Source: a virus | Reading direction: 5' to 3' (one strand) | Virus record (IMG/VR): IMGVR_UViG_3300007963_002612 | Location: 1-29,634 of that record | DNA: 29,634 bases | Shown: in pieces, positions 1,603-21,884 of the stretch | Numbering within the stretch: the first letter of the stretch is position 1 | How the letters are laid out: each line of letters starts with the position of its first letter | The notes under the pieces: model-generated | What the model was told of the DNA's origin: nothing | Database searches by the model: none | The model's input: only the letters and a program-made list of their open reading frames with translations | Program-made: the position numbers and the translations under genes

Positions 1603-1619
1603 TTATCGGCTACCGATAA
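1603..1619 (-). promoter_or_regulatory. Hairpin at the stop codon of the giant virion gene
   Basis: A perfect 7-base inverted repeat (TTATCGG and CCGATAA with a 3-base loop) contains the stop codon of the giant gene. No U-run follows on the minus-strand transcript, so it is not a classical terminator. It may protect or attenuate the message just before scaffold and capsid. Confidence 0.45.
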
Positions 1620-4600
1620 ACACCGGACCCGCAGGTTCTTTGGACTTAGTGGTGCCGGGTACTACTCCAGAAGGTGCAGCAGAAGGGGTAAACCTATTTC
1701 TTCTTGGAGCATCACCGATAAATACCGGTGTTTTGGTTTTATCTACAGGAGTGTAGTCATCTCGGGGGTCTAAGTTATCCCTCTCACGAGCAGCCCTTCT
1801 GTTTTCCTCTATTGATTCCTGTCCCTGATTGATACCAGCCCTAACTTCTTCTACGTTAAGACGCCGTGACTCTATCTGAGCTTGTACCTCAGCTTCGTCG
1901 TTTGCCCAGATTTTAACAAGAGCATCACGAGCATCACTAGACGCTTTGTAATTCTCCTTTTGCTTATCAGGAAGAATGTTCCACATAGCTTCAGGAATAA
2001 CCTTGGTATTTGTGTTTGCACGAACCCACTGATTCTGCTCTTTAGACCAAGAGTTTATGTAGTCAGCGTAAGTGCTGTTAAAGAAATCATTATTAAAACT
2101 ATTGTCGCTATTAATAGAGTTAGCAACCATGTCGTAGTACGAGCGCATTGCCTTAGCGTTGTCGTCTATAGGTTCGTCATCAGATCTTACGAACTCGCCG
2201 TACTGGGTTTCAAACGCAGCGGATCTCTTGTCGGCACGGGTGTTGCCTGCGTCAAAGAACGCTGACACCTTCTGTGAGTCAGTCTTCTCCATATCGTCCA
2301 TGATGCCTACGAGTGTCGTGAAGTAGTCTTCATCAATCTGGGCGATCTGAGCCGAGAACTCACTGTCTTTCTGGCTGCCCTCAAACTTGTTCATGGCGAT
2401 AGCGTTGTCTTGCAAGAACGGCGGGAGGTCTTGGAATACAGAGTAGTCAGAATCGGTTAAGTTTGCCAAACCTTTTCTGCCCGGTCGGTCTTTATTAGGG
2501 TGGTCTTTAGGGTACTTGTAGTCTCTTCGGGTTATTTCCTCTACTCCTTGGTAGGAAATCACAGAGGTACCAAAGAACGACGGCGCTGCTAGAGCCGCCC
2601 CTGTAAGCCCGTCAGCTCTGTAGGACTCTATTAAGTCTTGGGCTAACAGTGGTGCGAACCTGGAGATTAGCAGATCCATCCGGTTGCCTGAACCGAAGTC
2701 AATCTCGTCGCCAGTGAAGTCTCCACCAAGGGCTATGTCGGTTCCGAAGCCTACTACTGGTGCGAGTTTAGCTCTGAAGAAGTTACCGATCTCTTGAGAG
2801 ACAAGGCCTATGCCGTCCTTGTCTAGGTCGGTGATTCTGCCTGTGCCAGTTGACTTGCGCTCTCGCATTGCTACACGGGCAATCGTACGCACGAGTGGTT
2901 GGAAACCACCCCAGATATCAACACGGGTGTTGCCTACCTGAATACGACCGGCGTCTGAAGACGTTGGGTTAAGTTCTACTGAGGCACCAGCGATAGCTGC
3001 GAGTCCCAGTACGGTAGCTCCACCACCCATAGCTCCACCCATGTCACGGTAAATATGATTCTTCACACGCTTAGATCGATCCCACCTGATGAGTTCGTAT
3101 GGCGCTTCGAAACGTGCAGCCATAAGGCGGGGTGAGAAGAAGATGTTTGCTAGCGGGGCTGCTGCTCCTTCAAGCATCCCAAGGTCACCACGACCAGTAG
3201 ATATGTTGATGTAGCGAGCAAGGTCACGCCCATCCTTTAGTGTTTGTGCTGTGGGAACAAGGTCGCCTGTGGCTTCGTCAAGAATAAAGCTCGCTTTACC
3301 GTTGCTATCAAGAGAGCCTGGAGTCTTCCAGCTTTCCCAGGCGTCGTTCATTAAACCGAACCTAAGCTCGTCCAAGAACCCGCTCCAACCACGCTCAGAG
3401 AACCTGATTGGGTAACCAGCTACAGTGCCGATGCCGCTAAGAATACTCTTCACAGGTTTCTTTGCCCCTGGAGTTCGAGTTGTCCAAGCAGCTAAGTTAC
3501 CAGCACGGTCAGGCAGCCTCTTTAAGAACTCAGACAAGAACGCCTCTTCGTTCTGACCAAGCCCTGCTTCAGGGTCAGTCTCAAACAGTCCTAGTCCTCG
3601 CTGGTTTTCAGGCAGGTTGGGACTGGACGGTTCAGTAAAGATTCTGTAGTTCTTGTGGGCTTGTCTCTTTGTTCTTTGTGCGTCGTAGTATTTGCCGCTT
3701 ATAGCTCCCTTCCATGCAGGTCCCCATGTTTTAGCCCAGCGTAGTGGGTGACCACCCAAGGGCAGTAATGCTTGACGTAGCGGAGCAGAGAAGTCCATCG
3801 TGGCAAGGAGGAGCCTTGGAATCCCAAGAACATCCATAATCTCATCAAATGTCTTACGCTTCCACCCTCGGGTGTCGAACATTCCGGCAGTTACTTCTTT
3901 ACCAAACACTGAACGCAATCGCTGGATATCAAATTTCGTCAGGTGTTCTCCGTCAACCAACTTCCATATAGCCTTAGCTGTATTAAGTTTGGTGTATGGA
4001 CGCATGCGCGGGTTACGTGCGATTGACTCAAAGATCAAGTGCATATCAGCTTCACTCAACGAGTTAGCTGGGTCTGCGTTCGGCCCTCTAATTGGGGGGC
4101 GATCCATAGCAGAGAGTGGTTTTTCTCCTGTGGCTTGGAGTGGCGCAGTACCTCTTTTTATTATGTCTTCACCGGTCGCTGTTGAAGTCGAGAATATATT
4201 TGCTGAAGCAGCCGCTGCTTGCCGGTTTTGCGCTGCTCGTAAATCTACGTCAGCGTTGGTCTGTCGCCCTACTTGTTTAATAATGTCCACCATGCGAGGT
4301 CGAATGTCTTCACGTACGATTCTGTCTGCATCTGCCCAAGGAACAGCCGTTCCTTGAAGGGCGGCTTTTTCCAGTGCTTTGTCGGCACCGTTCTCAAGGT
4401 CTAAGCCTAAACGCTCAGCTTGACGAACCCTTGCGTCACGTAGGACTTGCGCTGCTCTGTTCTCTTCTAGGACTACATCTCTGTTCGCCCTTGCGAACGG
4501 GTTGGTGTCGTCAAGGTCGCCACGACCGGTAACATCAGGGACTACGCTCTCGTCGATACTTTCACCACGTCGAGCTGCGGCAACGTCAGCTTCAAGTTGA

Positions 4601-7600
4601 TCATCGAGAGACATACCAGCAGCACGACGCCTTTCGCGTGCTGCGTTAAGAGCATCTTCATCTCGGCTTCCACGATCCATAAAGTTGCGAGTAGGAGTGT
4701 CCCAGTCGCTTTCAAGACTAGGCAAGTTCCTGACGCTTCTTACGGTATTGCTGGTGTCTCTAATAACAGAAAGCCCAATAGCAGACAGGTCGTCGGAAAA
4801 GAGTTCACCTTCCCTCGTGGCGTCGCCTAAAGACCGCATGTGCATGTTCCAGGTATTCCCGTTACTTACAGACGGGTCGCTACGCGGTATGCGCGAAAAA
4901 CCAACGATTGCGGCAGGGCGAAAATTGCCATCCACCCTAACAGAATATGTCAGTTGGTTACCTGAATCCACTGACCCCCTAGCAGGCACAACACGCTGAA
5001 TAATAATCGGGTTATATTCGATTGAACTAGGGTCGCCAGTTTCGATAGGCTGATATCCCGGTGCGTCCCTCCATACCTGAACACCATCTTCAACCGCTTG
5101 ATCCCAGTCTTCATCGAACATGCGTATTCCTGATGGACCTTCCACTTGCGGTGTTGTGGTTTCCGGAGAATACCGAAGTGGACCACGCTGGTTGTTAGTG
5201 TCCGGCATGGGTCGAGGTCGGGGCTGGCTTGATACATTTTCAACTCCAGGCGGACCTGTCCTTCGTCCTGAACCGGGATCTCTGTCTAGGTATACATCAG
5301 CTTCTTTTTCACTGATACGGGTTCGAGGAGGTATTGAGCTAGTAGTTCCTCCAATCTCCCCTGGTGTTCGTGCGTTGGCTGCGGAGGTGGTCCACCAAGG
5401 GTTAGGGTTACGGAATGGTTCTGTAAGCTTGCGGTTTCCGCCGCCTTCTTTATCAAGAATCGTCCTGCCTTGGTCATCACTCACTGTCCGATGCCACATA
5501 GGTTGGTTTTCTTTAGCCGTCGGGTTGTAGAAAATGTCATCAAAAGCTTTAAATTCTACTTCTGTCAGGCTTGAGCGTCCTCCTGTACCAGTAGAAGGAT
5601 CATCAAGTAAAACTTGTCGCAACCAATGAGTAACCTGCCCAAAGATTTCCATTAACCCTTGGATACCCCTACCACCTAGGTTTATTCCTTCAAGGCCAGC
5701 TCGCAAGAAATCGTCAGGATTAGCAAGGTAGTTTACGTACCCCTGTGCAAACTTTTCATCAGCATCGTTAGTCCAAATACCATTCTTTACTCCTGAGTAT
5801 TTCTCAAGAATCAAACGAGAGTCTGGATTCATGTCATATAGGTCGCGCCTAATTACGTGACCGATCTCGTGAAACATAGTTTCAACTTCGGTAACCATGC
5901 GCTGGGGGTCAACATCCCCTGCCACCCTGCCAAAGTTAGTGCTAATAACTGCTCGTACAACATTCTCTGCTACGGCATACTCGCCCTGAGCAAGTGCCAT
6001 AGGCTTTACAAACACGGTAGAAGCGTCAACACCTGATTCAGATGACGGGCTAAGAAGCCTTCCGTCATCCATCATTACCAAGCCATCAATGTTAAAACCA
6101 GCAAACCGTGAGCGCAGCCACTCCGCTTCTGATAACCCTCTTCTTTCACCTTGACCAGCGTGAATACTAAAGGGCTGGGTTTTAACTGCTAGGTATCTTT
6201 TCTTAAGAATTTCTATTTGATCATCGATTAACTCTTCATCGATATTAGGGAAGGAACGGCTGAGTCCTATCTTAACGTCTTTAAAGTTACGGACTATAGA
6301 GCTAACAGGGCCTAAAACTTCCCGTTGTTTATTTGCTTCTTTAAATCCAGCAGGTAGTTCAATTTTGCCACCAGCATAGTTTCGTATGTCATTAGCTCTT
6401 AAGGCAACAGTATTCTTAGTTCCATGTAGGCGGCTTCCTTTAATCCCTAAAACTTTTCCTGGAGGTGAGCCGTCTAGCGGAGCCATTTCTATGTAATCAA
6501 CAATTTTATCTAAGACTCGAGCAAGGTTCATGGCACCTTTAACGCCGTCACCAAAAACTGCTTTTTGATCAAAGTTCCCGTAATCAAGACTGTAACCGTA
6601 TTCATCTGTTCCTGTGATACTTAACCCGTAGTTATATTCAATAGACTTACCGCTATCAGGGTTTACATGCGTCCTTGTCTTTAGGTCGTAGTCGGCAGGG
6701 TAGACACTAAACTCTGCTACAGGCTCAAACTCGCCGTCAATTTTTTTATACACCGTGTAAGCCCCGCCACCTTTAGGATTTTGACCGAGGTCGCCATAAC
6801 CATAACTAGGCTCTCTGTACTCGACTTTAAAGTCACCCCTGCCACGAGTTATAGGTGAAGCTATTTCTTCAGGTGTTCTAGTCTCTACGTATACTCCATG
6901 ATCTCTTGGCAGAAAAGCCTGTTCTTTCATGCCTTTATAGTTGCCAGCCGCTCTAGACGGGTCCCCTTCAATATCTCTTTGAAGTTGAACAAATAGATCA
7001 GGGGCTTCTCCGGGAACAGGAGGGCTGTCAACAGACTCTATGCCACCTTCTTTATTTATACGTACAATCTCACCAGTAGCTCGTTCCTGAGGTCGAAGTA
7101 TTTCTTCACGGAACGCTACCGGAGCGCCCTGACCGTAGCCAAGTATTTCGTAGTCTTCCCTAGAAAGAGGTATTGGGTATCCGTCAGCGTCAACATGAGG
7201 CTCTACTGATTCTGGGGAGCGTCGGCTTGCATTTTCCCCATAGCGCAAGTCAGCAAGTCTTCGTTGACCTTCCTCTGTTCTGTAGCCATAGCCATCGTCT
7301 TCAGTCCTTGGAAGAGCCCCTCGCTCAATAAAATCATCAGGGTCTTCGTATATACCGTCATCTACAACACCAGCTCTTTCGCTGGTTGCCTCATCTAGTA
7401 TCCGCTGCTGTTCGCTTTCAGCTCGCCGTGTCTCACGCAACAACCTGTCTACTTTGCCAGCAGATGTACGGGGTGGCTCGGCAATGTTGCTAGGGTCTAG
7501 TGATTGCCTAGTTGCATTAATAGCCGCTCCGCCTCCTCGTTTAATTAGAGCAGGGCCAGCTATTGCACCTATACCACCAATTAACCCAACAGCAATTTGC

Positions 7601-8511
7601 TGGGCCATGTTCATTTCTACGCCTTGATCTTCCAGTGCGTTGACTAGTAGGTTTCCTCCAAGCTCTCCTTGGGCTTCCATGCGTAACGCTCTTGCATACG
7701 TTCCGTCATCTATTAGCTTGGCAGCGAGCTTTAATGCTTTAGCTTTAGCTGGTGTAGACGCTTTTGCAGCAGCAGCTCTAAGAGCTACTGATCCTGCCTG
7801 AGTAACCCCAGGTGCTAGAGCAGTTAGGCTCATTGAAAATGGTGACGAGAAGTCACGGATAGTTTCACGAGCAACCCTGTTGAACCCGCCAGTTGGGTTT
7901 TCCTCGGAGTATGTAAATGACTTAGGGATAGTCGGGGTGGTGAAGTTAAACAAAGCCCCTGCTGCGTCTGAGTATTCTTTTCTACGCTCAGGGGTGCTGT
8001 AAGCAGCCTCAGTCTTGTCTCCACCTCTAGACATTAGGAACGGGCGAGCAAAGACAGTGCCAAAGCGTTCAAGCTGAGTGGGCTCTGGAGCGTTCCGGAG
8101 TTCTTCTTTCTGCTTATCAGCAAGCATCATGCTAAGACCGGGAGCTATTCCAGACTTGAACTGATCAACCCCCATTTCGCTAAACACATCTAAGAACGCA
8201 GCATTACCTGCTTCTATTGGATCGACTCCCTGTCCAACTTTCTCATCCTTAAGCATGTCTACGGCGTTAACGACAGCTCCGAACTTTTCAGGATTGGAGA
8301 CATGAACTTTCTTTACATCAGCACCAATCGCCGCACTGTAAGCCTTGGCAAGCTCTTCCATGTAGCGATTGGCAATACCTGCCCACGCCTCTGCATTAGG
8401 CTGTTGTGGAAGCCCTTGAGTTTGACTCTTTGCTTGAGTCGCAGGGCTAAACGGGCGGCTAGCAGCCGGTATAGGAGCGTTTGGGTTTAAGCTTCTTCCT
8501 CGTGGTGGCAT
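1603..8511 (-). CDS. Giant virion-associated polyvalent protein with zincin motif (2302 aa)
   Basis: The largest gene, lying between the portal side and the scaffold. Residues 1-130 are Pro/Ala/Gln-rich then helical; about 225-330 is Ala/Gly-rich and could be membrane-active. An HEIGH metallopeptidase motif lies at residues 881-885, followed by E919 in a DEKFAQGY context, as in zincin domains. Residues 1000-1450 are low-complexity and charged. About 1560-1800 (ATMDFSAPLRQAL, ISTGRGDLG, FFSPRLMAARFE) matches my memory of a conserved region of large phage polyvalent proteins (LPD38-like). A Gly/Ala-rich stretch follows near 1815-1840, and the C-terminus is charged and helical. Likely packed in the head and ejected, or used in head maturation; no separate prohead protease is visible. 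The start, ATG 8511, is 2 bases after the previous stop and lacks a clear ribosome binding site, so translational coupling is likely. Confidence 0.8.
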   Translation of the reverse strand: MPPRGRSLNPNAPIPAASRPFSPATQAKSQTQGLPQQPNAEAWAGIANRYMEELAKAYSAAIGADVKKVHVSNPEKFGAVVNAVDMLKDEKVGQGVDPIEAGNAAFLDVFSEMGVDQFKSGIAPGLSMMLADKQKEELRNAPEPTQLERFGTVFARPFLMSRGGDKTEAAYSTPERRKEYSDAAGALFNFTTPTIPKSFTYSEENPTGGFNRVARETIRDFSSPFSMSLTALAPGVTQAGSVALRAAAAKASTPAKAKALKLAAKLIDDGTYARALRMEAQGELGGNLLVNALEDQGVEMNMAQQIAVGLIGGIGAIAGPALIKRGGGAAINATRQSLDPSNIAEPPRTSAGKVDRLLRETRRAESEQQRILDEATSERAGVVDDGIYEDPDDFIERGALPRTEDDGYGYRTEEGQRRLADLRYGENASRRSPESVEPHVDADGYPIPLSREDYEILGYGQGAPVAFREEILRPQERATGEIVRINKEGGIESVDSPPVPGEAPDLFVQLQRDIEGDPSRAAGNYKGMKEQAFLPRDHGVYVETRTPEEIASPITRGRGDFKVEYREPSYGYGDLGQNPKGGGAYTVYKKIDGEFEPVAEFSVYPADYDLKTRTHVNPDSGKSIEYNYGLSITGTDEYGYSLDYGNFDQKAVFGDGVKGAMNLARVLDKIVDYIEMAPLDGSPPGKVLGIKGSRLHGTKNTVALRANDIRNYAGGKIELPAGFKEANKQREVLGPVSSIVRNFKDVKIGLSRSFPNIDEELIDDQIEILKKRYLAVKTQPFSIHAGQGERRGLSEAEWLRSRFAGFNIDGLVMMDDGRLLSPSSESGVDASTVFVKPMALAQGEYAVAENVVRAVISTNFGRVAGDVDPQRMVTEVETMFHEIGHVIRRDLYDMNPDSRLILEKYSGVKNGIWTNDADEKFAQGYVNYLANPDDFLRAGLEGINLGGRGIQGLMEIFGQVTHWLRQVLLDDPSTGTGGRSSLTEVEFKAFDDIFYNPTAKENQPMWHRTVSDDQGRTILDKEGGGNRKLTEPFRNPNPWWTTSAANARTPGEIGGTTSSIPPRTRISEKEADVYLDRDPGSGRRTGPPGVENVSSQPRPRPMPDTNNQRGPLRYSPETTTPQVEGPSGIRMFDEDWDQAVEDGVQVWRDAPGYQPIETGDPSSIEYNPIIIQRVVPARGSVDSGNQLTYSVRVDGNFRPAAIVGFSRIPRSDPSVSNGNTWNMHMRSLGDATREGELFSDDLSAIGLSVIRDTSNTVRSVRNLPSLESDWDTPTRNFMDRGSRDEDALNAARERRRAAGMSLDDQLEADVAAARRGESIDESVVPDVTGRGDLDDTNPFARANRDVVLEENRAAQVLRDARVRQAERLGLDLENGADKALEKAALQGTAVPWADADRIVREDIRPRMVDIIKQVGRQTNADVDLRAAQNRQAAAASANIFSTSTATGEDIIKRGTAPLQATGEKPLSAMDRPPIRGPNADPANSLSEADMHLIFESIARNPRMRPYTKLNTAKAIWKLVDGEHLTKFDIQRLRSVFGKEVTAGMFDTRGWKRKTFDEIMDVLGIPRLLLATMDFSAPLRQALLPLGGHPLRWAKTWGPAWKGAISGKYYDAQRTKRQAHKNYRIFTEPSSPNLPENQRGLGLFETDPEAGLGQNEEAFLSEFLKRLPDRAGNLAAWTTRTPGAKKPVKSILSGIGTVAGYPIRFSERGWSGFLDELRFGLMNDAWESWKTPGSLDSNGKASFILDEATGDLVPTAQTLKDGRDLARYINISTGRGDLGMLEGAAAPLANIFFSPRLMAARFEAPYELIRWDRSKRVKNHIYRDMGGAMGGGATVLGLAAIAGASVELNPTSSDAGRIQVGNTRVDIWGGFQPLVRTIARVAMRERKSTGTGRITDLDKDGIGLVSQEIGNFFRAKLAPVVGFGTDIALGGDFTGDEIDFGSGNRMDLLISRFAPLLAQDLIESYRADGLTGAALAAPSFFGTSVISYQGVEEITRRDYKYPKDHPNKDRPGRKGLANLTDSDYSVFQDLPPFLQDNAIAMNKFEGSQKDSEFSAQIAQIDEDYFTTLVGIMDDMEKTDSQKVSAFFDAGNTRADKRSAAFETQYGEFVRSDDEPIDDNAKAMRSYYDMVANSINSDNSFNNDFFNSTYADYINSWSKEQNQWVRANTNTKVIPEAMWNILPDKQKENYKASSDARDALVKIWANDEAEVQAQIESRRLNVEEVRAGINQGQESIEENRRAARERDNLDPRDDYTPVDKTKTPVFIGDAPRRNRFTPSAAPSGVVPGTTKSKEPAGPVFIGSR

Positions 8512-14675: not shown

Positions 14676-15032
14676 CAATGCCCGCCAAGATAGTATCTTT
14701 GTATGTTGACCTACGCTAAGTAGGTGCTGGGAACGCCACTTCATGCTATGTGCGTGATTATGGCAAACCGTTCCAGCCACTGTCAATTTTACCGTTGTTT
14801 TTGGTGTTGTGTTTTGCCTCCGAAATCATGTTTTTTTTGGCGTTATGTTTTGGGGGTCGCTCGCGAGCGCGCGCTAAACCCTACCTGCCTGTGCCCGCTC
14901 GTCACAAATCTTCGATTTGGCGCGAAACGTGATCGTCATGACGCCACGTTTTAGCGACCCCAATTGATACCGTTTTAAAAGTTCGTTTGGCAAGTGTCCA
15001 GACGATTCGCAAATAGGAAAGCGGTTTTGGAT
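14676..15032. promoter_or_regulatory. Divergent control region with repeats and palindrome; possible origin
   Basis: 357 bases between the minus-strand small terminase and the plus-strand early genes, with no convincing gene. It holds a 19-base direct repeat (TTTTTGGTGTTGTGTTTTG at 14798, 17 of 19 identical at 14834), a perfect 12-base palindrome CGCTCGCGAGCG (14858-14869), a widely spaced inverted repeat GGGGTCGCT/AGCGACCCC (14853 and 14953), a CAAATC/GATTTG hairpin (14905-14919) and GTCATGAC. T-rich direct repeats next to palindromes resemble an origin or an early promoter region. I found no -10/-35 pair I trust. Confidence 0.45.
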
Positions 15033-15695
15033 ATGAGTGCATCAGCACAGGTAGCTGTACCTACATACAGCATGGAAGAGTTTCTCGGCACTATCGTTGC
15101 ATCGGACAAGTTCGCATGCCCCACCCACGTAGGTCGCAAGGCAGGGAATTTCTCTGCTAACGGGGCTTCAAATCACATCACATGGTGCCCGGATATGCAG
15201 GCTGCATACGCTGTAGCCCCGACTGCGAAGGCGAAGGTGAAAAAATCCAAGCCTACGCAGTTGGAGGATTCGGCACTGCGGGGTTGGGCTGGCAAGCCCC
15301 GTACCCAGCGTAGGGACGCCCGGCAGGTACTCGACCCCGTAGGGCAGCAGGATAACACTGTCCGTTCGAAGGGTCGTGTGCGAATCACCGGCGGCTATGT
15401 AGACCCGGCTACGATGCCAGCCGACTGGAACGTTGATCGAAACGGTCGCGAGATCAAGGGCAAAGCCCTTACGAACCGGGTCGAGAAGCTTGTACGTGAC
15501 GGCAAGGCGGTCGTGACCGTGAAGGCACCGGCGTCTACACCAGCCCCGGCACCGGCAGAGGTGGCTGCACCTACGGTCACCCTTGCTGACCGGGTTGCAA
15601 AATTGGAAATTGAGGTCGAGAATTTCGCCCCGGTAGTGCAAGCACTACAAAGCTACGTAGCTGCACATGAGGACATGATTGAAGCTGCATCGTAG
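15033..15695 (+). CDS. Hypothetical early protein with Cys/His cluster and coiled coil (220 aa)
   Basis: Not recognised. ATG 15033 is chosen because AGGAAAG lies ten bases upstream; a GTG 39 bases earlier has no such site. Residues about 25-55 hold a CPTH and an ITWCPDM element, a possible metal-binding pair set. The middle (70-165) is basic, with a KAKVKKSKPT stretch. A Pro/Ala linker near 170-185 leads to a predicted C-terminal coiled coil (LADRVAKLEIEVENFAPVVQ). It is the first gene of the rightward set, so an early regulator or DNA-binding protein is possible. It carries one CCCCGTAGGG motif. Confidence 0.7.
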   Translation: MSASAQVAVPTYSMEEFLGTIVASDKFACPTHVGRKAGNFSANGASNHITWCPDMQAAYAVAPTAKAKVKKSKPTQLEDSALRGWAGKPRTQRRDARQVLDPVGQQDNTVRSKGRVRITGGYVDPATMPADWNVDRNGREIKGKALTNRVEKLVRDGKAVVTVKAPASTPAPAPAEVAAPTVTLADRVAKLEIEVENFAPVVQALQSYVAAHEDMIEAAS

Positions 15696-15704
15696 GCAGG
15701 TACA

Positions 15705-15773
15705 GAGTGGGTGTGGAGACACACCCGCTCATGTACGGAGGGTCAAGCCGGGTGGTTTGGTTCTCCGTACATG
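15705..15773 (+). ncRNA. Tandem strong RNA hairpins after the first early gene
   Basis: Stem 1: GAGTGGGTGTG (15705-15715) with CACACCCGCTC (15720-15730) closed by a GAGA (GNRA) tetraloop. Stem 2: CATGTACGGAG (15730-15740) with CTCCGTACATG (15763-15773), 11 perfect pairs, with a small inner AAGCC/GGTTT stem. No U-run follows, so mRNA processing or stability is more likely than termination. Confidence 0.6.
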
Positions 15774-15824
15774 GGTACACCATGAACACATACATACGGA
15801 AAGGTATGAAAATTGGAATTGAAA

Positions 15825-16238: not shown

Positions 16239-16391
16239 ATGGAAGCTAAATTAGACTGGCGATTCGACCTGATTCGGTCGCTATGGGGCAAGGGCAAAGT
16301 TTCCCTACCCAACCGCAGGTTGCTTATGAAGCAACTCGCACATGACATGAACGCTGCAAAGCAGCAGAAAGGTAGCTATGGAAAAGGGTAG
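16239..16391 (+). CDS. Hypothetical small basic protein (50 aa)
   Basis: Not recognised. ATG 16239 is chosen because AGGAAAGG lies just upstream. The 50 residues are basic and helical (EAKLDWRFDLIRSLWGKGK, then RRLLMKQLAHDMNAAKQQKG), with no Cys. Its 3' end overlaps the next gene by 14 bases, and the AAAGG for that gene is inside it, so the two are translationally coupled. Size and charge fit a small host-takeover or nucleic-acid-binding protein, but this is only style. Confidence 0.55.
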   Translation: MEAKLDWRFDLIRSLWGKGKVSLPNRRLLMKQLAHDMNAAKQQKGSYGKG

Positions 16392-16764
16392 TTTGTTCAC
16401 AGTCGCAGACTCGGCTGGCAAGGCACGATATGAGGGCAGTTCTCTACGAGTTGCTGTCGAAACATGGAAGATAGGCGCTGTACTTCATGACGCCTCCATG
16501 ATGGACGTACATGGCAACGTACAAACGGACATGGACTGTGGTGGTGGAATTACGCTGGACTTTGCTGACGTATTTGGCGATGAGCGCCTTATGGACAGTT
16601 CATGTGGGCGTATATCCTGCGACGACTGTAACCCTATGGACACTGACATGCCATACAACCACCCCGAAGATTTATGTGAGGGCTGCGACGTCATGTTCAA
16701 GCACCACATGACATCTGACGGACATGCGTTCAGTGGCACGATGAACTACAACTTCGGCAAGTAG
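16378..16764 (+). CDS. Hypothetical acidic Cys-rich protein (128 aa)
   Basis: Not recognised. ATG 16378 follows AAAGG by six bases and overlaps the previous gene. The protein is acidic. Near residues 80-105 it has a cysteine cluster (CGRISCDDC, then CEGC), followed by HH and H, a possible zinc-binding module. The N-terminal half has a beta-like sequence (SLFTVADSAGKARYEGSS). It ends 13 bases before the first copy of the paired hairpin element. Confidence 0.6.
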   Translation: MEKGSLFTVADSAGKARYEGSSLRVAVETWKIGAVLHDASMMDVHGNVQTDMDCGGGITLDFADVFGDERLMDSSCGRISCDDCNPMDTDMPYNHPEDLCEGCDVMFKHHMTSDGHAFSGTMNYNFGK

Positions 16765-16776
16765 AAAAGCCGAATA

Positions 16777-16835
16777 CACACCTCCCCCTTTTCTCTCTCT
16801 GAACAAAGTGAAGAGAGATAAAAGGTGGAGGGGTG
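16777..16835 (+). ncRNA. Structured RNA element, copy A
   Basis: A long hairpin right after a stop codon. The upper stem TCTCTCT (16794-16800) pairs with AGAGAGA (16812-16818) around the loop GAACAAAGTGA. Below a C-U mismatch come TTTT/AAAA with CC/GG, then CCTCC (16781-16785) with GGAGG, then CAC with GTG: 21 pairs in all. Copy B at 17918 has the same loop and compensatory changes in the upper stem. Confidence 0.7.
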
Positions 16836-16878
16836 GTCAACCAAATTGCAAACGATTTTCAGGAAAGGAAATCACGAC

Positions 16879-17145
16879 ATGAAAACACAGGTATACACCA
16901 TGAAGCAGGTCAAGGAAGCCCCCGTAGGGTCTGATCTCGAACTGCTCGAACCCGGCAACGCTGGCGAGCTCACAGATGAGCAAGCTGACTGGGTTCGTAG
17001 GCACTTGAAGCGAAGCTTGACGCTCGCTAAGTGGTGGGGATTTAGCAAGAAGCCCCGTAGGGCTAAGCTTGCGATCATGAGGGTAGCCGCAGACGGCGAC
17101 CCGGACGACGTGGCAATCAATCAACAGCTAGTGAAAGGCTCGTAA
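16879..17145 (+). CDS. Hypothetical basic protein (88 aa)
   Basis: Not recognised. ATG 16879 is chosen because AGGAAAGG lies upstream. The N-terminal half is mixed (KTQVYTMKQVKEAP, then an ELLEPGNAGELTDEQADWV helix) and the second half is basic (RRHLKRSLTLAKWWGFSKKP). Two copies of the CCCCGTAGGG motif lie in it, read in different codon frames. It follows structured element A by 43 bases and is followed after one base by the next gene. Confidence 0.6.
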   Translation: MKTQVYTMKQVKEAPVGSDLELLEPGNAGELTDEQADWVRRHLKRSLTLAKWWGFSKKPRRAKLAIMRVAADGDPDDVAINQQLVKGS

Positions 17146-17146
17146 C

Positions 17147-17422
17147 ATGCCCGGTACGATACACGTATTCGCCTTCGTAAAAGGCGACGAGACGCTCCGT
17201 ATGGCATACACCTCTGAGGGTGTCATGAACAAAGACCCTATGGCTCCTATATATGATGGCTGGGAGTACGAAACCGAGTTCGAAATACCTGTGGTGGACA
17301 TAACGTATGACGAAGTGAAAGCCCTCTGGGACAAACAACCTAAGGCGAAGCCTGTCAACTGCTTCTCACCTGTAAACGAGCCATGTGACTGTGGCTCCAC
17401 ATGTAAAGGGTACGGTACATAA
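17147..17422 (+). CDS. Hypothetical protein with C-terminal Cys motif (91 aa)
   Basis: Not recognised. ATG 17147 follows AAAGG inside the end of the previous gene. The body is acidic and beta-like (MPGTIHVFAFVKGDETLRMA, then WEYETEFEIPVVDITYDEV). The last 15 residues hold a CDCGSTC cluster plus one more Cys, which could bind a metal. It is tightly packed with its neighbours: the small membrane protein starts one base after its stop codon. Confidence 0.6.
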   Translation: MPGTIHVFAFVKGDETLRMAYTSEGVMNKDPMAPIYDGWEYETEFEIPVVDITYDEVKALWDKQPKAKPVNCFSPVNEPCDCGSTCKGYGT

Positions 17423-17539
17423 ATGTCAGAACTACGAAGCGAGCTTCGCATGGTCTACATAAGCATCATGGTGCTGCTCATCATGAGTGCTGTCTTCTCG
17501 ATCTCAATCATCTACGCTATAGGGAAGGCGTGCACATGA
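17423..17539 (+). CDS. Small membrane protein (38 aa)
   Basis: A 38-residue frame starting at ATG 17423, directly after the previous stop. A charged N-terminus (MSELRSELR) is followed by one hydrophobic helix (MVYISIMVLLIMSAVFSISI, about residues 10-29) and a short tail with Lys and Cys. This fits a single-pass inner-membrane protein. Its role is unknown; small early membrane proteins of phages can affect superinfection or membrane potential. The ribosome binding site is AAAGGGT within the preceding gene's end. Confidence 0.55.
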   Translation: MSELRSELRMVYISIMVLLIMSAVFSISIIYAIGKACT

Positions 17540-17552
17540 AACATTGAACTAA

Positions 17553-17655
17553 GGGTAAGGGTGTCAGCCCCTACATACGCTCAAGTAATGCGTAGGCTGA
17601 CCCTCACCCACAGGGGCACAAGCTTCCCTTTCCGGCTTGTGTCCCTCTGGGTGGG
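17553..17655 (+). ncRNA. Two mutually exclusive RNA stems (switch-like leader)
   Basis: Stem 1 (17553-17609): GGGT, AGGG and TCAGCC pair with GGCTGA, CCCT and ACCC, 14 pairs with a mismatch and a 2-base bulge. Stem 2 (17603-17655): AGGGGCACAAGC pairs with GCTTGTGTCCCT, extended past one mismatch by CTCACCCA with TGGGTGGG, 20 pairs. Both need the bases 17603-17609, so they cannot form together. The element sits in the 182-base leader of the 64-residue gene. Confidence 0.55.
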
Positions 17656-17721
17656 AGATTCTCACATGAAAACGGGTACGACATATGGGTAAGGGCACTT
17701 ACATAACAGGAAGGAACGTAC

Positions 17722-17916
17722 ATGGAAAAGTTTCTGGTCAGCGATACGATCACGGAGTGGCGTAGCTATCACGTCATGGCAAACTCAGAGAAGGAAGCTA
17801 TGAAGCTAGTCGAAGAATTTGCTACGGACAAACCTACTGATGACATACACCCGGACATATCGTTCGTGGACAGGGGTATCACGGACAGAGATCAGCAAAT
17901 TGAAGTTGACCGCTAA
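17722..17916 (+). CDS. Hypothetical small acidic protein (64 aa)
   Basis: Not recognised. ATG 17722 has AGGAAGG upstream. The sequence begins EKFLVSDTITEWRSYHVMAN, followed by a helix SEKEAMKLVEEFA and an Asp-rich tail. The pattern strand-turn-strand-helix (a Tyr/His-Val strand then an SEKEAMKLVE helix) resembles small phage proteins with a ferredoxin-like half, but this is only a guess. It is flanked by the switch-like leader upstream and element B directly after its stop. Confidence 0.6.
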   Translation: MEKFLVSDTITEWRSYHVMANSEKEAMKLVEEFATDKPTDDIHPDISFVDRGITDRDQQIEVDR

Positions 17917-17917
17917 C

Positions 17918-17978
17918 CCAACCCTCCCCCTTTTCTCCTCTTGAACAAAGTGAAAGAGGATAAAAGGAGGAGGGGTGG
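17918..17978 (+). ncRNA. Structured RNA element, copy B
   Basis: The same design as copy A and likewise placed right after a stop codon. The upper stem TCCTCTT (17936-17942) pairs with AAGAGGA (17954-17960) around the identical 11-base loop GAACAAAGTGA. A C-U mismatch, TTTT/AAAA, CC/GG, a C-A mismatch and CCCTCC with GGAGGG follow. Four pairs differ from copy A with both partners changed. A T6 run follows at 17990-17995. Confidence 0.7.
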
Positions 17979-18033
17979 AGTACCCCAAATTTTTTGGTTC
18001 TCAAAGCCCATTAGCATCGTGAAAGGATACGAC

Positions 18034-18273
18034 ATGGCAACACGGAGTGAACAGCGACTGATTCTCGGACAGGTACTGGGTGTACCTACGAAGGGTGTCG
18101 CACGACATGAGTTGCAAGCGCAGCTTGAAGCTAGCCCCAACGCAGAGGCGTTGCAGGCAGTGGTGAAAAAAATCTCACGTAAGGTCAACGGCTTCAAAGG
18201 CAAGCCTGTGACACGTGTGAACAAAGCAATCGAAGCGGTTGCTAAGCAGGCAGCAGCAGAGGCTGCCGCATAG
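18034..18273 (+). CDS. Hypothetical small basic Ala-rich protein (79 aa)
   Basis: Not recognised. ATG 18034 is chosen because AAAGGA lies just upstream; longer versions of the frame would run back through element B. It is helical and basic, with EQRLILGQVLGVPTKGVARH, then KKISRKVNGFKGKP and an Ala-rich C-terminus (VAKQAAAEAAA). The first half could be a small DNA-binding helical domain. It ends directly before the 390-base hairpin-rich gap. Confidence 0.6.
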   Translation: MATRSEQRLILGQVLGVPTKGVARHELQAQLEASPNAEALQAVVKKISRKVNGFKGKPVTRVNKAIEAVAKQAAAEAAA

Positions 18274-18663
18274 GTTGAGGGTGTATGACATACTCATACA
18301 TCGGAACGCTGCGACGTGGCTCACATATACGCCAAGATTGGTAGTACGAGAGAGCGTCGCCGTTCCACATGTAGCTGCAAGCGCAGCAGGTACTCGAATG
18401 GTTTACCAGTTCAGCGAGAGTGCCGTTTGTAGCTACATGTGGAGCGTGTCGTGTGCATAACGACAGGTTGGCAGAGGAACCACCCGTAGGGGGTACAGAA
18501 TCAAGCAGGTAAATAAGCGCAGCCGCAGTCATGTAGTGCTGCACTTGATTCTCCTAAGGGTGTGGGGACGCCGTGATTCAGTCCTGCGTGCCGACACATC
18601 GGCTCCATAGTCCCTCCCGTAGCTGTCCGGCTACGGGAGAGGGCGCAATACATATATCCGGAC
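18274..18663 (+). ncRNA. 390-base non-coding stretch with at least five hairpins
   Basis: No credible gene. Stems: TGTATGA/TCATACA (18282-18300); GGAACG plus GCGACG with CGTCGC plus CGTTCC (18303-18366); a 19-pair stem from 18365-18383 to 18424-18442 with two G-U pairs; AGAATCAAG/CTTGATTCT (18497-18552) with an inner GCAGC/GCTGC; and CTCCCGTAGC/GCTACGGGAG (18614-18639). One CCCGTAGGG at 18483. No tRNA-type T arm is visible. It could be a structured RNA or a chain of processing sites. Confidence 0.55.
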
Positions 18664-19124: not shown

Positions 19125-20147
19125 ATGTTTGTGGGTATCACAGACAGGGACTTCAAGTCCAAACTAGCAGGGCTTGAGAACGAAGGGCGGTTCTTCAACA
19201 CGCTCGGGCAGGAAGTTGCGTGGGACTTATGTCGCACAGATGGACTGCATCGCTTACTGCTAGGTGGCACAGGGTGGGGCAAGACCTTCGTAGTGCAGAC
19301 GGTTATGAAGATTCTCGGCAAGCCATTCGTTGCGGTGAACGCTCACCCAGGCATGGACATACGAGACTTGGTTGGTCAATGGCGACCTGAGGCTCTTGAG
19401 TCCGGGGGCGTGACGATCAAGTGGCAAGATGGAACTTTTACTGAGGCTGTACGAGAGGGCAAGACCTTCATGTTGGAGGAAGCCACACGTGCACCGCAGG
19501 AGTTCATGTCCCGTATGTACGGTGTCATGGATTCAGCCGGGGCTTACTGGTCGCTGCCTGAGAATGGTGAAACGGCTGTGCCTATCGGTGATGAGTTCTC
19601 GGTGGTGGCTACGGCTAACCCACCCGGCAACGGCTACCTTAGCCAGAACTTAGACAAGGCTTTCCTTCGCAGGTTCAAGTGGATACGTACCATCGATGAG
19701 CCGTTGGCAGATGAGGAAAAGGCTCTTGCTTATGTACTCGGTGACGGCACTGAGGAGCAGAAAGACAGAGCCAAGCGGTTCTACACATGGGTAGACGATG
19801 CCCGTGAAGCAGCAGATACGAACATCAACACTGGTGACTTGACTGCTGCTGCGGAAATGACAATGCGTGGGTTCACACCTATGCAGGCGCTTGAGTACAC
19901 CATCACACCTAAGTATGCGAACGCTTCGGCTTTGCTAACTGGAGGTCGTGCCCACTTCGGGACTCCGGCATCGAACAAGGTAATCGTTGGCAACTCGGCT
20001 ATGTTTCCCAACAATTCAGCTAGTGCTCCGGCACCGGCACCGAAACCTGAGCCTAAGTCAGGTGCGTCGGACATAGCATCGACAATCGCAAGTATGTCAA
20101 CAGAAGACATACTCAAGGCAATCAGCGGTATCAAACCCGCAGGATAA
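19125..20147 (+). CDS. MoxR/CobS-type AAA+ ATPase
   Basis: 340 residues. Walker A is GGTGWGKT (47-54). The Walker B place is FMLEEATRA (about 115-123), with Glu where MoxR proteins usually have Asp. Sensor 1 is VVATANPPGNG (160-170), and an arginine-finger segment KAFLRRFKW follows (178-186). A Pro/Lys linker (PAPAPKPEPK, near 305-315) leads to a short helical tail. MoxR and CobS ATPases work with VWA-domain partners to insert metals or remodel proteins. The partner gene follows at 20277, so a two-component chelatase-like or chaperone-like machine is likely. The ribosome binding site is AAAGGA. CobS homologues are known in marine phages; here the pairing with a VWA protein favours a MoxR-VWA or CobST pair. 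Confidence 0.85.
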   Translation: MFVGITDRDFKSKLAGLENEGRFFNTLGQEVAWDLCRTDGLHRLLLGGTGWGKTFVVQTVMKILGKPFVAVNAHPGMDIRDLVGQWRPEALESGGVTIKWQDGTFTEAVREGKTFMLEEATRAPQEFMSRMYGVMDSAGAYWSLPENGETAVPIGDEFSVVATANPPGNGYLSQNLDKAFLRRFKWIRTIDEPLADEEKALAYVLGDGTEEQKDRAKRFYTWVDDAREAADTNINTGDLTAAAEMTMRGFTPMQALEYTITPKYANASALLTGGRAHFGTPASNKVIVGNSAMFPNNSASAPAPAPKPEPKSGASDIASTIASMSTEDILKAISGIKPAG

Positions 20148-20155
20148 GAGGGCGC

Positions 20156-20293
20156 ATGAGTAGACCAGCTAAGGCACGCAAGAGCAGGGCACGGAAGAAC
20201 CGTGGTTGTATGTTGTGTCAATTCGAGAAGCGTATGAGGGTAGAAAAGCCCAAGTACAGAAAGGTAGTGGAACGATATGCCGCGCAAGCGTAA
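20156..20293 (+). CDS. Small basic CxxC protein (45 aa)
   Basis: A 45-residue frame from ATG 20156, 8 bases after the ATPase gene, overlapping the VWA gene by 17 bases. It is extremely basic (SRPAKARKSRARKNRG), has one CMLC motif and a basic C-terminal helix (KPKYRKVVERYAAQA). It may bind nucleic acid or act as an adaptor for the ATPase-VWA pair. The AAAGG for the VWA gene lies within it, so the two are translationally coupled. Confidence 0.5.
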   Translation: MSRPAKARKSRARKNRGCMLCQFEKRMRVEKPKYRKVVERYAAQA

Positions 20294-21884
20294 GAGCAGA
20301 GACACCCGGTTCTCGGACTACGGTTCGTTCTTCGGTATGTTATCTGGCGGAGGCAGGGCTAAGATCAAGCGTGACGACACACGTGACGCTAGTGACATAG
20401 CAGCAGGGCGTGACATGGAAGGGGATAGGTCAGATGACTTTGACACCCCTGCATATGCTGAGCGTCAGGCACAGGTGTTCCTGCCTAAGCAGTCAAGCTT
20501 TGAAGCCAAGCTGCTTGGTGCAGGGCGAGCAAAGTTCAGTCCACTTGGGGCTACGGATATCCTCAAAGATGTTGCTGGCTCTGACGTAGCTAGCATATGG
20601 GACTCGTTTGAAAATGCTAGGACTGCACACAAGGCTACTGAGCATTACCACAACGACAAGATTATGAAGGAGTTCTACGGGGCGGTGGGAAACAGACCCG
20701 ACCCTATGAGCATGAGCGCAGAGCAAGCTATAACTGGCAGCAACCTGCGAACAGAAATCTTGCGTATGGCAGTAGATGTACCGTCGCCCGGTGCACACCA
20801 TGTCATAAAGAAAATGCGACAGAAGTTCGACAGTCAAGTGCATGCAGCTATGGCTTCAGATGATCAGGAGGAATTGATCAAGCTGTCGGCTGAGATCGCT
20901 GACTACTTGGACATGGAGCGACCTAAGAACTACCGCAAGCCTCCCGGCAAGCAGCCGATAGATGCTGGTGACATCTTAGAGAAGGTCAAAGCGAAAGACG
21001 CTGCCAAGCGTGAGGAAATCAAGGACGCTAAGGCAACCGGCGACGAAGTGCAAGACGGTAATACAGGTAAGTATGCACCCGGTGGCAAGGACGCTGTGAA
21101 GGTTATGGGCAGGAAGCATGAGTTCTCAAGCGTTGAGCATGTTGACTCTGAGCCTATCCAACTCGGCAGCGCAGTGAACATAGTCTTAGATGAGACACGT
21201 GGCTTACGAGATAAGCAGAAAGATAGGTTCAAAGGCGCTCCCGGTCGTGACATATGGCGACTAGGTATGATGGGTGATACCGCTGTGTTTGAGGAGAACA
21301 AGAAGACCCGTGGCAAAGTAGCCATCATGGTAGACATGAGCGGGTCGATGGGTTGTCCTTGTGCAAGCTGTGATGAGCGTCGTGGTCGGGGCTGGCGCAG
21401 CGAGTTTGGGTCATACCGAAACGCTGCTTGGTTAGCATGGCAGTGTGCTGGTGCAATCATGAAAGCGTTCCCTGAGTCAGATGTGTATTCGTACTCATCA
21501 GGCAGGGGTAGCTACTGTGCTGCATCAATCCTAACCAACGCAACAGGACAACAGCCTACCCACGCTTCAGTAGGGCGGTACATGGGAGGCAGCACTCCGA
21601 CATGTACCGGTGCTTTGTTCTTGAAGAACGTGATTACATCAGACATTGGTGCATCAGCAGCCGTGCTTATCACTGACGGATACCCAAACATGAACGACTG
21701 CACAGCAGCGGTGAACAAGGGGTTCATAAGGGACGGTCTGAGGTTTGCTTCGGTTCTAATCGGTCACGACCTGCGAAACATGGACTCTATCTTCCCCTCT
21801 GAGAGCAGTGTCCAGATCAACGATGAAGAAAGTCTGCCTAATTTAGTGCAGACTATGAGGTTTTTGAGTGAGGTACGACAGTAA
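20277..21884 (+). CDS. VWA-domain protein, CobT-like partner of the AAA+ ATPase
   Basis: 535 residues. The N-terminal 340 residues are charged and helical and probably bind the ATPase. The VWA domain starts at about 346: MIDAS motif DMSGS (353-357), threonine of the second motif in GGSTPTCTGAL (T440), and ITDG (D467) as the third. Directly after the MIDAS serines is a cysteine cluster GCPCASC (359-365), unusual for VWA domains and a possible extra metal site. CobT and other VWA partners of MoxR ATPases carry a C-terminal VWA domain in the same way. The gene overlaps the small basic gene and ends before a GTAA-tetraloop hairpin (21892-21905). Confidence 0.85.
   Translation: MPRKRKSRDTRFSDYGSFFGMLSGGGRAKIKRDDTRDASDIAAGRDMEGDRSDDFDTPAYAERQAQVFLPKQSSFEAKLLGAGRAKFSPLGATDILKDVAGSDVASIWDSFENARTAHKATEHYHNDKIMKEFYGAVGNRPDPMSMSAEQAITGSNLRTEILRMAVDVPSPGAHHVIKKMRQKFDSQVHAAMASDDQEELIKLSAEIADYLDMERPKNYRKPPGKQPIDAGDILEKVKAKDAAKREEIKDAKATGDEVQDGNTGKYAPGGKDAVKVMGRKHEFSSVEHVDSEPIQLGSAVNIVLDETRGLRDKQKDRFKGAPGRDIWRLGMMGDTAVFEENKKTRGKVAIMVDMSGSMGCPCASCDERRGRGWRSEFGSYRNAAWLAWQCAGAIMKAFPESDVYSYSSGRGSYCAASILTNATGQQPTHASVGRYMGGSTPTCTGALFLKNVITSDIGASAAVLITDGYPNMNDCTAAVNKGFIRDGLRFASVLIGHDLRNMDSIFPSESSVQINDEESLPNLVQTMRFLSEVRQ

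What the first reader, a model, noticed from the sequence alone, without database searches (positions are those of the whole stretch)
16777..17978. Two copies of a structured RNA with an identical 11-base loop and four compensatory base-pair changes
Elements A (16777-16835) and B (17918-17978) each follow a stop codon and precede a small gene. Both have the loop GAACAAAGTGA, a C-U mismatch after seven upper pairs, TTTT/AAAA, CC/GG, another mismatch, then a C-rich/G-rich stem. In the upper stem, TCTCTCT/AGAGAGA in A becomes TCCTCTT/AAGAGGA in B: four pairs changed on both sides and still Watson-Crick. This is direct covariation evidence for a functional RNA stem and a selected loop, perhaps an RNase III or protein binding site, or a regulator of the following gene.
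Basis: seen in the sequence. Interest (0 to 1): 0.85.

Follow-up and report, generated by a model that had tools for sequence, protein, structure and literature searches.

The report
GA-capped RNA hairpins before phage genes
Between small genes of this uncultured tailed phage lie long RNA hairpins whose arms change freely but stay paired and whose tip is almost fixed; the same tip occurs on unrelated long stems in other, unrelated phages, always pointing the way the next gene is read, so it is a real and apparently undescribed RNA element, probably a site where phage messages are processed or controlled.

Summary
Elements A (16777-16835) and B (17918-17978) are ~21-24 bp hairpins (z about -4) between a stop codon and the next start. 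Two diverged relatives carry five more, at the same genes plus one extra site; over 15 pairs in 7 sequences, 12 pairs change on both sides. The 'loop' is a structured cap: closing U-A, tandem G.A, two covarying pairs (AC/GU, GU/AC, AU/AU), then a triloop. The same cap on long stems of unrelated sequence occurs in 16 other viral contigs, 1-5 copies per record, all on one strand; wherever a next gene was called it is on the same strand (29 of 29), start a median 35 nt downstream. No U-tract follows; no Rfam family matches. Relatives of gene B in distant phages of this group also follow long hairpins, with other tips (7 of 7 versus 14 of 110 other genes). Best reading: an RNA element of gene junctions working like the RNase III processing sites of phage T7, cap perhaps protein-bound. 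RNA class well supported; mechanism inferred (0.5).

The parts
16777..16835 (+). Hairpin A: stem of 21 bp in segments 7+6+5+3 separated by single mismatches (C.U, C.U, A.G), cap at the tip
16801..16811 (+). Cap of A: GA-AC-AAA-GT-GA (tandem G.A, 2 bp, triloop), closed by T-A
17918..17978 (+). Hairpin B: stem of about 24 bp in segments 7+6+6+3 with single mismatches (C.U, C.A, A.G); extended finder limits 17916-17981
17943..17953 (+). Cap of B, identical to that of A
16378..16764 (+). Gene that ends 12 nt before hairpin A (128 aa, pI 4.5)
16879..17145 (+). Gene A, led by hairpin A: 88-aa basic protein (pI 9.4); L015 and L016 orthologues (76-77% identical) are also led by capped hairpins, the L092 orthologue is not
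17722..17916 (+). Gene that ends just before hairpin B (64 aa, pI 4.5)
18034..18273 (+). Gene B, led by hairpin B: 79-aa basic protein (pI 10.4); relatives in L015/L020, L016/L024, L092, L046, L043, L047 all follow a long hairpin

Best explanation
A and B belong to a phage-borne RNA element that acts in the transcript at gene junctions: an imperfect hairpin of about two helical turns (median 21 bp plus cap) closed by a near-invariant cap (U-GA-[2 bp]-triloop-GA-A). Shown by sequence analysis: RNA-type covariation, fixed cap, sense orientation, position between a stop codon and the next start, several copies per phage, no terminator-type U-tract. Inferred: in the polycistronic early transcript the stem is a double-stranded substrate for the host's RNase III, which separates the messages and sets their 5' and 3' ends, as at the R sites of phage T7. 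The cap either fixes the fold and register of the stem or is bound by a phage or host protein; which one is open.
For: Covariation: 94.3% of cells paired against 69.0% in shuffles and 51-64% in slid registers; 12 of 15 pairs changed on both sides. Same cap on unrelated stems in other phages, including copies not used as search keys. Next gene on the same strand in 29 of 29 cases, 0 opposite; all copies in a record on one strand. Stem median 21 bp, about 2 mismatches, start codon median 35 nt on, T content after the hairpin below background. T7's known RNase III sites measured the same way: mostly 20-23 bp, 9-18 nt before the next start (108 nt for R1.1), repeated in one genome. Relatives of gene B keep a long hairpin in front while its sequence turns over completely. 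RNase III is widespread in the control genomes, and none of 10 phage records tested encodes one, which fits use of a host enzyme. Streptomyces RNase III cleaves mRNA (PMC2936110).
Against: No cleavage or RNA-end data. RNase III does not need a fixed tip, yet the tip is the most conserved part. In T7 the stem core is conserved and the tip varies, the reverse of what is seen here. Host unknown. Hairpins stand before only some genes.
Confidence: 0.5

Rival explanations
1. Protein-binding operator in RNA: a phage protein binds the tandem-G.A cap in the nascent message and represses, activates or antiterminates (in logic like lambda N and boxB, or an autoregulated ribosomal protein). The small basic proteins encoded next to the elements are candidates.
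For: The cap is nearly fixed while stems are free. Tips are lineage-specific but shared by several hairpins of one genome, as if matched to a factor. The genes after A, B and the third copy in L015 encode basic proteins (pI 9.4, 10.4; window homologue of the third 9.7), neighbours 16378, 17147 and 17722 are pI 4.5.
Against: No protein shown to bind; no recognisable RNA-binding domain. A tip-reading factor needs no two-turn stem. In the other phages many led genes encode acidic proteins. The gene family that follows hairpins in the L140/L219/L240 group is basic but homology to gene B is not supported.
Confidence: 0.25
2. Passive message stabiliser or insulator: the stem blocks exonucleases or shields the next leader, without cleavage or a dedicated partner.
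For: Position in leaders, very stable stems.
Against: Does not explain the conserved tandem G.A, two covarying cap pairs and U-A closing pair, nor stem lengths centred near 21 bp.
Confidence: 0.12
3. DNA-level palindrome: a REP-like element moved by a Y1 (RAYT-type) nuclease, or a replication or recombination signal.
For: The same cap, on a 5-bp stem inside GTCACTCTGAACGAAGTGAAGAGTCT, is repeated in genomes of many bacterial phyla. GNA triloops flanked by sheared G.A pairs are very stable in DNA (own knowledge). A and B are about 91% alike over 58 bp while A differs from the orthologous hairpins of relatives, as if one had been copied. G-U pairs are rare in the capped stems of the window clade.
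Against: Strict sense orientation relative to genes and one strand per record; stems share no sequence outside close relatives; positions conserved at orthologous genes; no long stem in the bacterial repeats. Y1_Tnp found in only 1 of 3 repeat-bearing genomes tested.
Confidence: 0.08
4. Intrinsic terminators, or neutral products of palindrome-forming mutation.
For: Long stable hairpins after stop codons; template switching can create and repair stems (PMC8794818).
Against: T content after the hairpin is below background, 1.4 against 1.9 in 8 nt. The mismatches and G.A pairs are not repaired, GA...GA is not seen inverted to TC...TC in the elements found, and position and orientation are conserved.
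Confidence: 0.05

Closest known systems
RNase III processing sites of phage T7 (R0.3 to R6.5)
   Same: Hairpins of about 20 bp repeated between genes of one phage, sense strand, shortly before the next start, related to each other with paired changes (sites from own knowledge, folded)
   Different: T7 conserves the stem core (AAGGTC.../...GGCCTT) and varies the tip; here the tip is conserved and the stem varies; starts lie further away; cleavage unproven here
lambdoid boxB hairpins bound by N
   Same: Copies within a phage share the tip, other phages have another tip, stems covary (own knowledge)
   Different: boxB stems are short and belong to nut sites with boxA near the start of operons; here stems are about 21 bp at several gene junctions and the tip has tandem G.A plus 2 bp
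Bacterial REP repeats and RAYT transposases
   Same: Identical cap GAACRAAGTGA in REP-like repeats; RAYTs described in PMC2817692
   Different: Bacterial repeats have 5-bp stems of fixed sequence; the phage elements have long stems of free sequence in fixed sense orientation
Promoter-stem-loop cassettes (PeSL) of T4-type phages
   Same: Intergenic stem-loops repeated in phage genomes (own knowledge; the paper itself was not available here)
   Different: PeSLs carry an early promoter; no promoter was identified here

Membership tests
RNase III processing site (T7-like) | Double-stranded stem of about two helical turns | tested here: met
   Median 21 bp in 32 elements; T7 sites mostly 20-23 bp
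RNase III processing site (T7-like) | Between co-directional genes on the sense strand | tested here: met
   29 of 29 called next genes on the same strand
RNase III processing site (T7-like) | Cleavage by RNase III in the stem | not testable with these tools
   Needs RNA-end mapping or an in vitro assay
boxB/N antitermination site | Short stem with a GNRA-like pentaloop | tested here: not met
   Stem length and tip differ; boxA and an N protein were not searched for
REP element mobilised by RAYT | Conserved stem sequence, many copies in both orientations | tested here: not met
   2-5 copies in the multi-copy records, one strand per record, stem sequence free
Intrinsic terminator | U-tract directly after the hairpin | tested here: not met
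   1 of 32 with 5 or more T in the 8 nt after it, equal to background
Any Rfam 15 family | Score at or above the gathering threshold | tested here: not met
   No hit for the window; weak below-threshold matches are microRNA look-alikes
Kink-turn or kink-loop | Asymmetric bulge beside tandem G.A | tested here: not met
   The tandem G.A is flanked by pairs on both sides and the two inner pairs covary

The most novel reading that the evidence does not exclude
The GA cap is the recognition tip of a widespread, undescribed phage regulatory RNA: a dedicated protein (perhaps the small basic product encoded next to it) binds capped hairpins before several genes of the same phage and coordinates their expression, with tip and protein re-specified in each phage lineage.
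Probability: 0.22. Interest if true: 0.82.

Novelty: new variant of a known kind. Interest (0 to 1): 0.66.

Why it matters
It adds a recurring structured-RNA element, with a precise searchable signature, to phage groups known only from metagenomes. It offers a testable case of free stem sequence with a fixed tip: either phages mark message boundaries for host RNase III in a standard format, or they use an unknown tip-binding regulator. It also shows that double-sided changes between two copies are weak evidence until relatives, orientation and gene context are examined.

Tried and rejected
Rfam membership of the capped hairpins. DNA similarity to cultured phages and protein-level relatives of genes A and B there: none. 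Short-query searches for capped stems among cultured phages gave only chance-level, mostly coding hits. Phage-encoded RNase III: none in 10 records. A virion RNA polymerase with DNA-hairpin promoters (N4 type, from memory): the 2302-aa ORF gave no family or structure match. Coding explanation for the TTG-started ORF through hairpin B: not open through to gene B in the relative L001/L016. Fold of proteins A and B: confident all-alpha models, no PDB match. Kink-turn or kink-loop reading of the tip: disfavoured because the two inner pairs covary and the internal loop is symmetric. Homology of gene B to the INGQLANATKA family: not supported. ATPase scan of bacterial genomes for prophages: nothing. 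The first pattern scan with fixed stem flanks found only the window's clade and one chance-like site, which is why the cap with one flanking pair was later used. MAFFT misaligned the third L015 copy in two alignments, so it was kept only in the fixed-length alignment A5 and left out of A13.

Full report
THE OBSERVATION. Both elements are present as described. The loop sequence occurs exactly twice in the window, with one further one-mismatch site. Both fold far better than shuffles (z -4.43 and -4.17). A lies between genes 16378-16764 and 16879-17145, B between 17722-17916 and 18034-18273; the starts follow 43 and 55 nt after the hairpins and have their own Shine-Dalgarno sequences.

RELATIVES. 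The window is a fragment of an uncultured tailed phage with no close cultured relative; its terminase resembles those of Microbacterium, Gordonia and Mycobacterium phages at 23-27% identity. Two diverged lineages were found in IMG/VR, held as L015/L020 and as L016/L021/L024. Both have a hairpin before the same two genes, and L015 has a third before its homologue of window gene 14994-15695. The tips are GAACAAAGTGA, GAACGAAGTGA, GAATGAAATGA and GAGTTCTACGA. These share U-GA-NN-NNN-NN-GA-A, where the NN pairs are complementary in every case and differ (AC/GU, AU/AU, GU/AC). So the tip is tandem G.A, two base pairs and a triloop. On the seven sequences 94.3% of cells pair (shuffled 69.0%), 12 of 15 pairs change on both sides, and slid registers give 51-64%.

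DISTANT RELATIVES OF THE SAME PHAGE GROUP. A terminase profile brought 63 loci with terminases down to about 60% identity. A long-hairpin finder (no hits in two shuffled contigs at the strict threshold; few in shuffled contigs at a looser one) shows long hairpins at gene junctions there too, with completely different sequence. In L043, L046, L047 and L092 the gene that resembles gene B again follows one, 37-69 nt before its start. Over seven genomes, 7 of 7 B-type genes have such a hairpin against 14 of 110 other genes. Related genomes are not independent, and L043 and L047 are joined to the B family only through L046, whose product is itself a fusion with a 14994-like C-terminal part. Tips are lineage-specific and shared by several hairpins of one genome: CTCTTTGAAAAAGAG in L092, mostly UUUA tetraloops in L043, L046, L047 and L053. 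Among intergenic hairpins of this group, G-U pairs exceed A-C mismatches 39 to 15 when both are scored alike, against 15 to 21 inside ORFs, as expected for selection on the sense RNA. The capped hairpins of the window clade themselves contribute no such excess.

UNRELATED PHAGES. Sixteen contigs carry the cap on long stems of unrelated sequence. None has tblastx similarity to the window at 1e-6, although several are related to each other. Representative ones encode terminase, portal, primase or internal virion proteins. Caps in this set, including copies not used as search keys, are GAACAAAGTGA, GAACGAAGTGA, GAACATAGTGA, GAACGGAGTGA, GAACGTAGTGA, GAATGAAATGA, GAAGGAACTGA and, with a tetraloop, GAACTAAAGTGA. 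With a codon-usage gene finder, the next gene lies on the same strand in 29 of 29 cases where one was called; five more hairpins lie inside same-strand gene calls; one lies at a contig end; none is opposite. All copies in a record are on one strand, up to five per record. Stems have a median of 21 bp with about two mismatches or bulges; the next start is a median 35 nt away; no U-tract follows. The stem covariation in this wider set is partly a result of the stem filter; the cap variants in copies not used as keys, the orientation and the position are not.

MECHANISM. Orientation, position, duplex length and freedom of the stem sequence are what an RNase III processing site needs. T7's known sites (positions from own knowledge) give a direct yardstick: mostly 20-23 bp hairpins shortly before starts, repeated in the genome with a shared core. 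What RNase III does not explain is the fixed tip. That points to a tip-binding factor or to a folding role of the cap. The genes led by A, B and the third copy encode basic proteins while neighbours 16378, 17147 and 17722 are acidic, which suggests but does not show autoregulation; in the other phages both basic and acidic products follow the hairpins. Proteins A and B have no recognisable fold.

CAUTIONS. The same cap occurs in bacteria as a short REP-like repeat with 5-bp stems, so convergence on a very stable cap, at DNA or RNA level, is possible. Template switching can generate paired changes without selection (PMC8794818); the retained mismatches, the GA...GA that is not seen inverted in the elements found, and the sense orientation argue that it is not the whole story. 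No expression data were available. Host and environment are unknown. Several viral contigs are related, so counts are not independent. E-values of the home-made models rest on short calibrations.

VERDICT. A real structured RNA element, absent from Rfam, with a signature that recurs across phages. RNA function in sense transcripts: about 0.9. RNase III-type processing as the main mechanism: 0.5. Dedicated cap-binding regulator: about 0.25.

Noticed in passing
window 17603-17655; L020 about 7530-7590; L024 6400-6477: A second conserved covarying hairpin class with loop (T)ACCTTTCCG or TTCCCTTTCCG; CCTTTCC is complementary to GGAAAGG, the Shine-Dalgarno sequence of several nearby genes, so it may be an anti-SD regulator.
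   Followed up: partly
window 15700-15776; L024 4206-4280 and 4580-4660; L020 about 5571-5648: Two abutting hairpins (GTGGGTGTG-GAGA-CACACCCGC then CATGTACGGAG...CTCCGTACATG) in an intergenic stretch conserved between relatives, apparently another structured RNA.
   Followed up: partly
window 18274-18480: Noncoding stretch after gene B folds into a very stable structure (-88.7 kcal/mol) and its first part is conserved in L015/L020.
   Followed up: partly
L092 6199-6278 -; L219 12123-12205 -; L231 761-866 +: RNAs of 80-106 nt that score as tmRNA but hold only a tRNA-like domain, each placed after the small gene that follows a long hairpin: possibly mini-tmRNA decoys.
   Followed up: partly
L219 12313-12382 -; L178 959-1034 -; L092 7660-7724 -: Pistol and type II hammerhead ribozymes in the same regions as the long hairpins of these phages.
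   Followed up: no
window 16777-16835 versus 17918-17978: A and B are about 91% identical over 58 bp while A differs strongly from the hairpins at the orthologous site in relatives, so one hairpin may have been copied over the other without its flanks.
   Followed up: partly
L352-L468 (bacterial genomes): Widespread repeat GTCACTCTGAACGAAGTGAAGAGTCT in many phyla, many copies in one Kapaibacterium genome, which also has a Y1 transposase gene with an internal stop.
   Followed up: partly
window 19125-20147 and 20277-21884: CobS-like AAA ATPase followed by a protein with an MVDxSGSMG motif like von Willebrand A domains, resembling a MoxR/CobS-CobT type pair; function in the phage unknown.
   Followed up: no
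window 1603-8511 -: 2302-aa protein with a HEIGH zinc-protease-like motif, no family match; possibly a polyvalent or ejected virion protein.
   Followed up: partly
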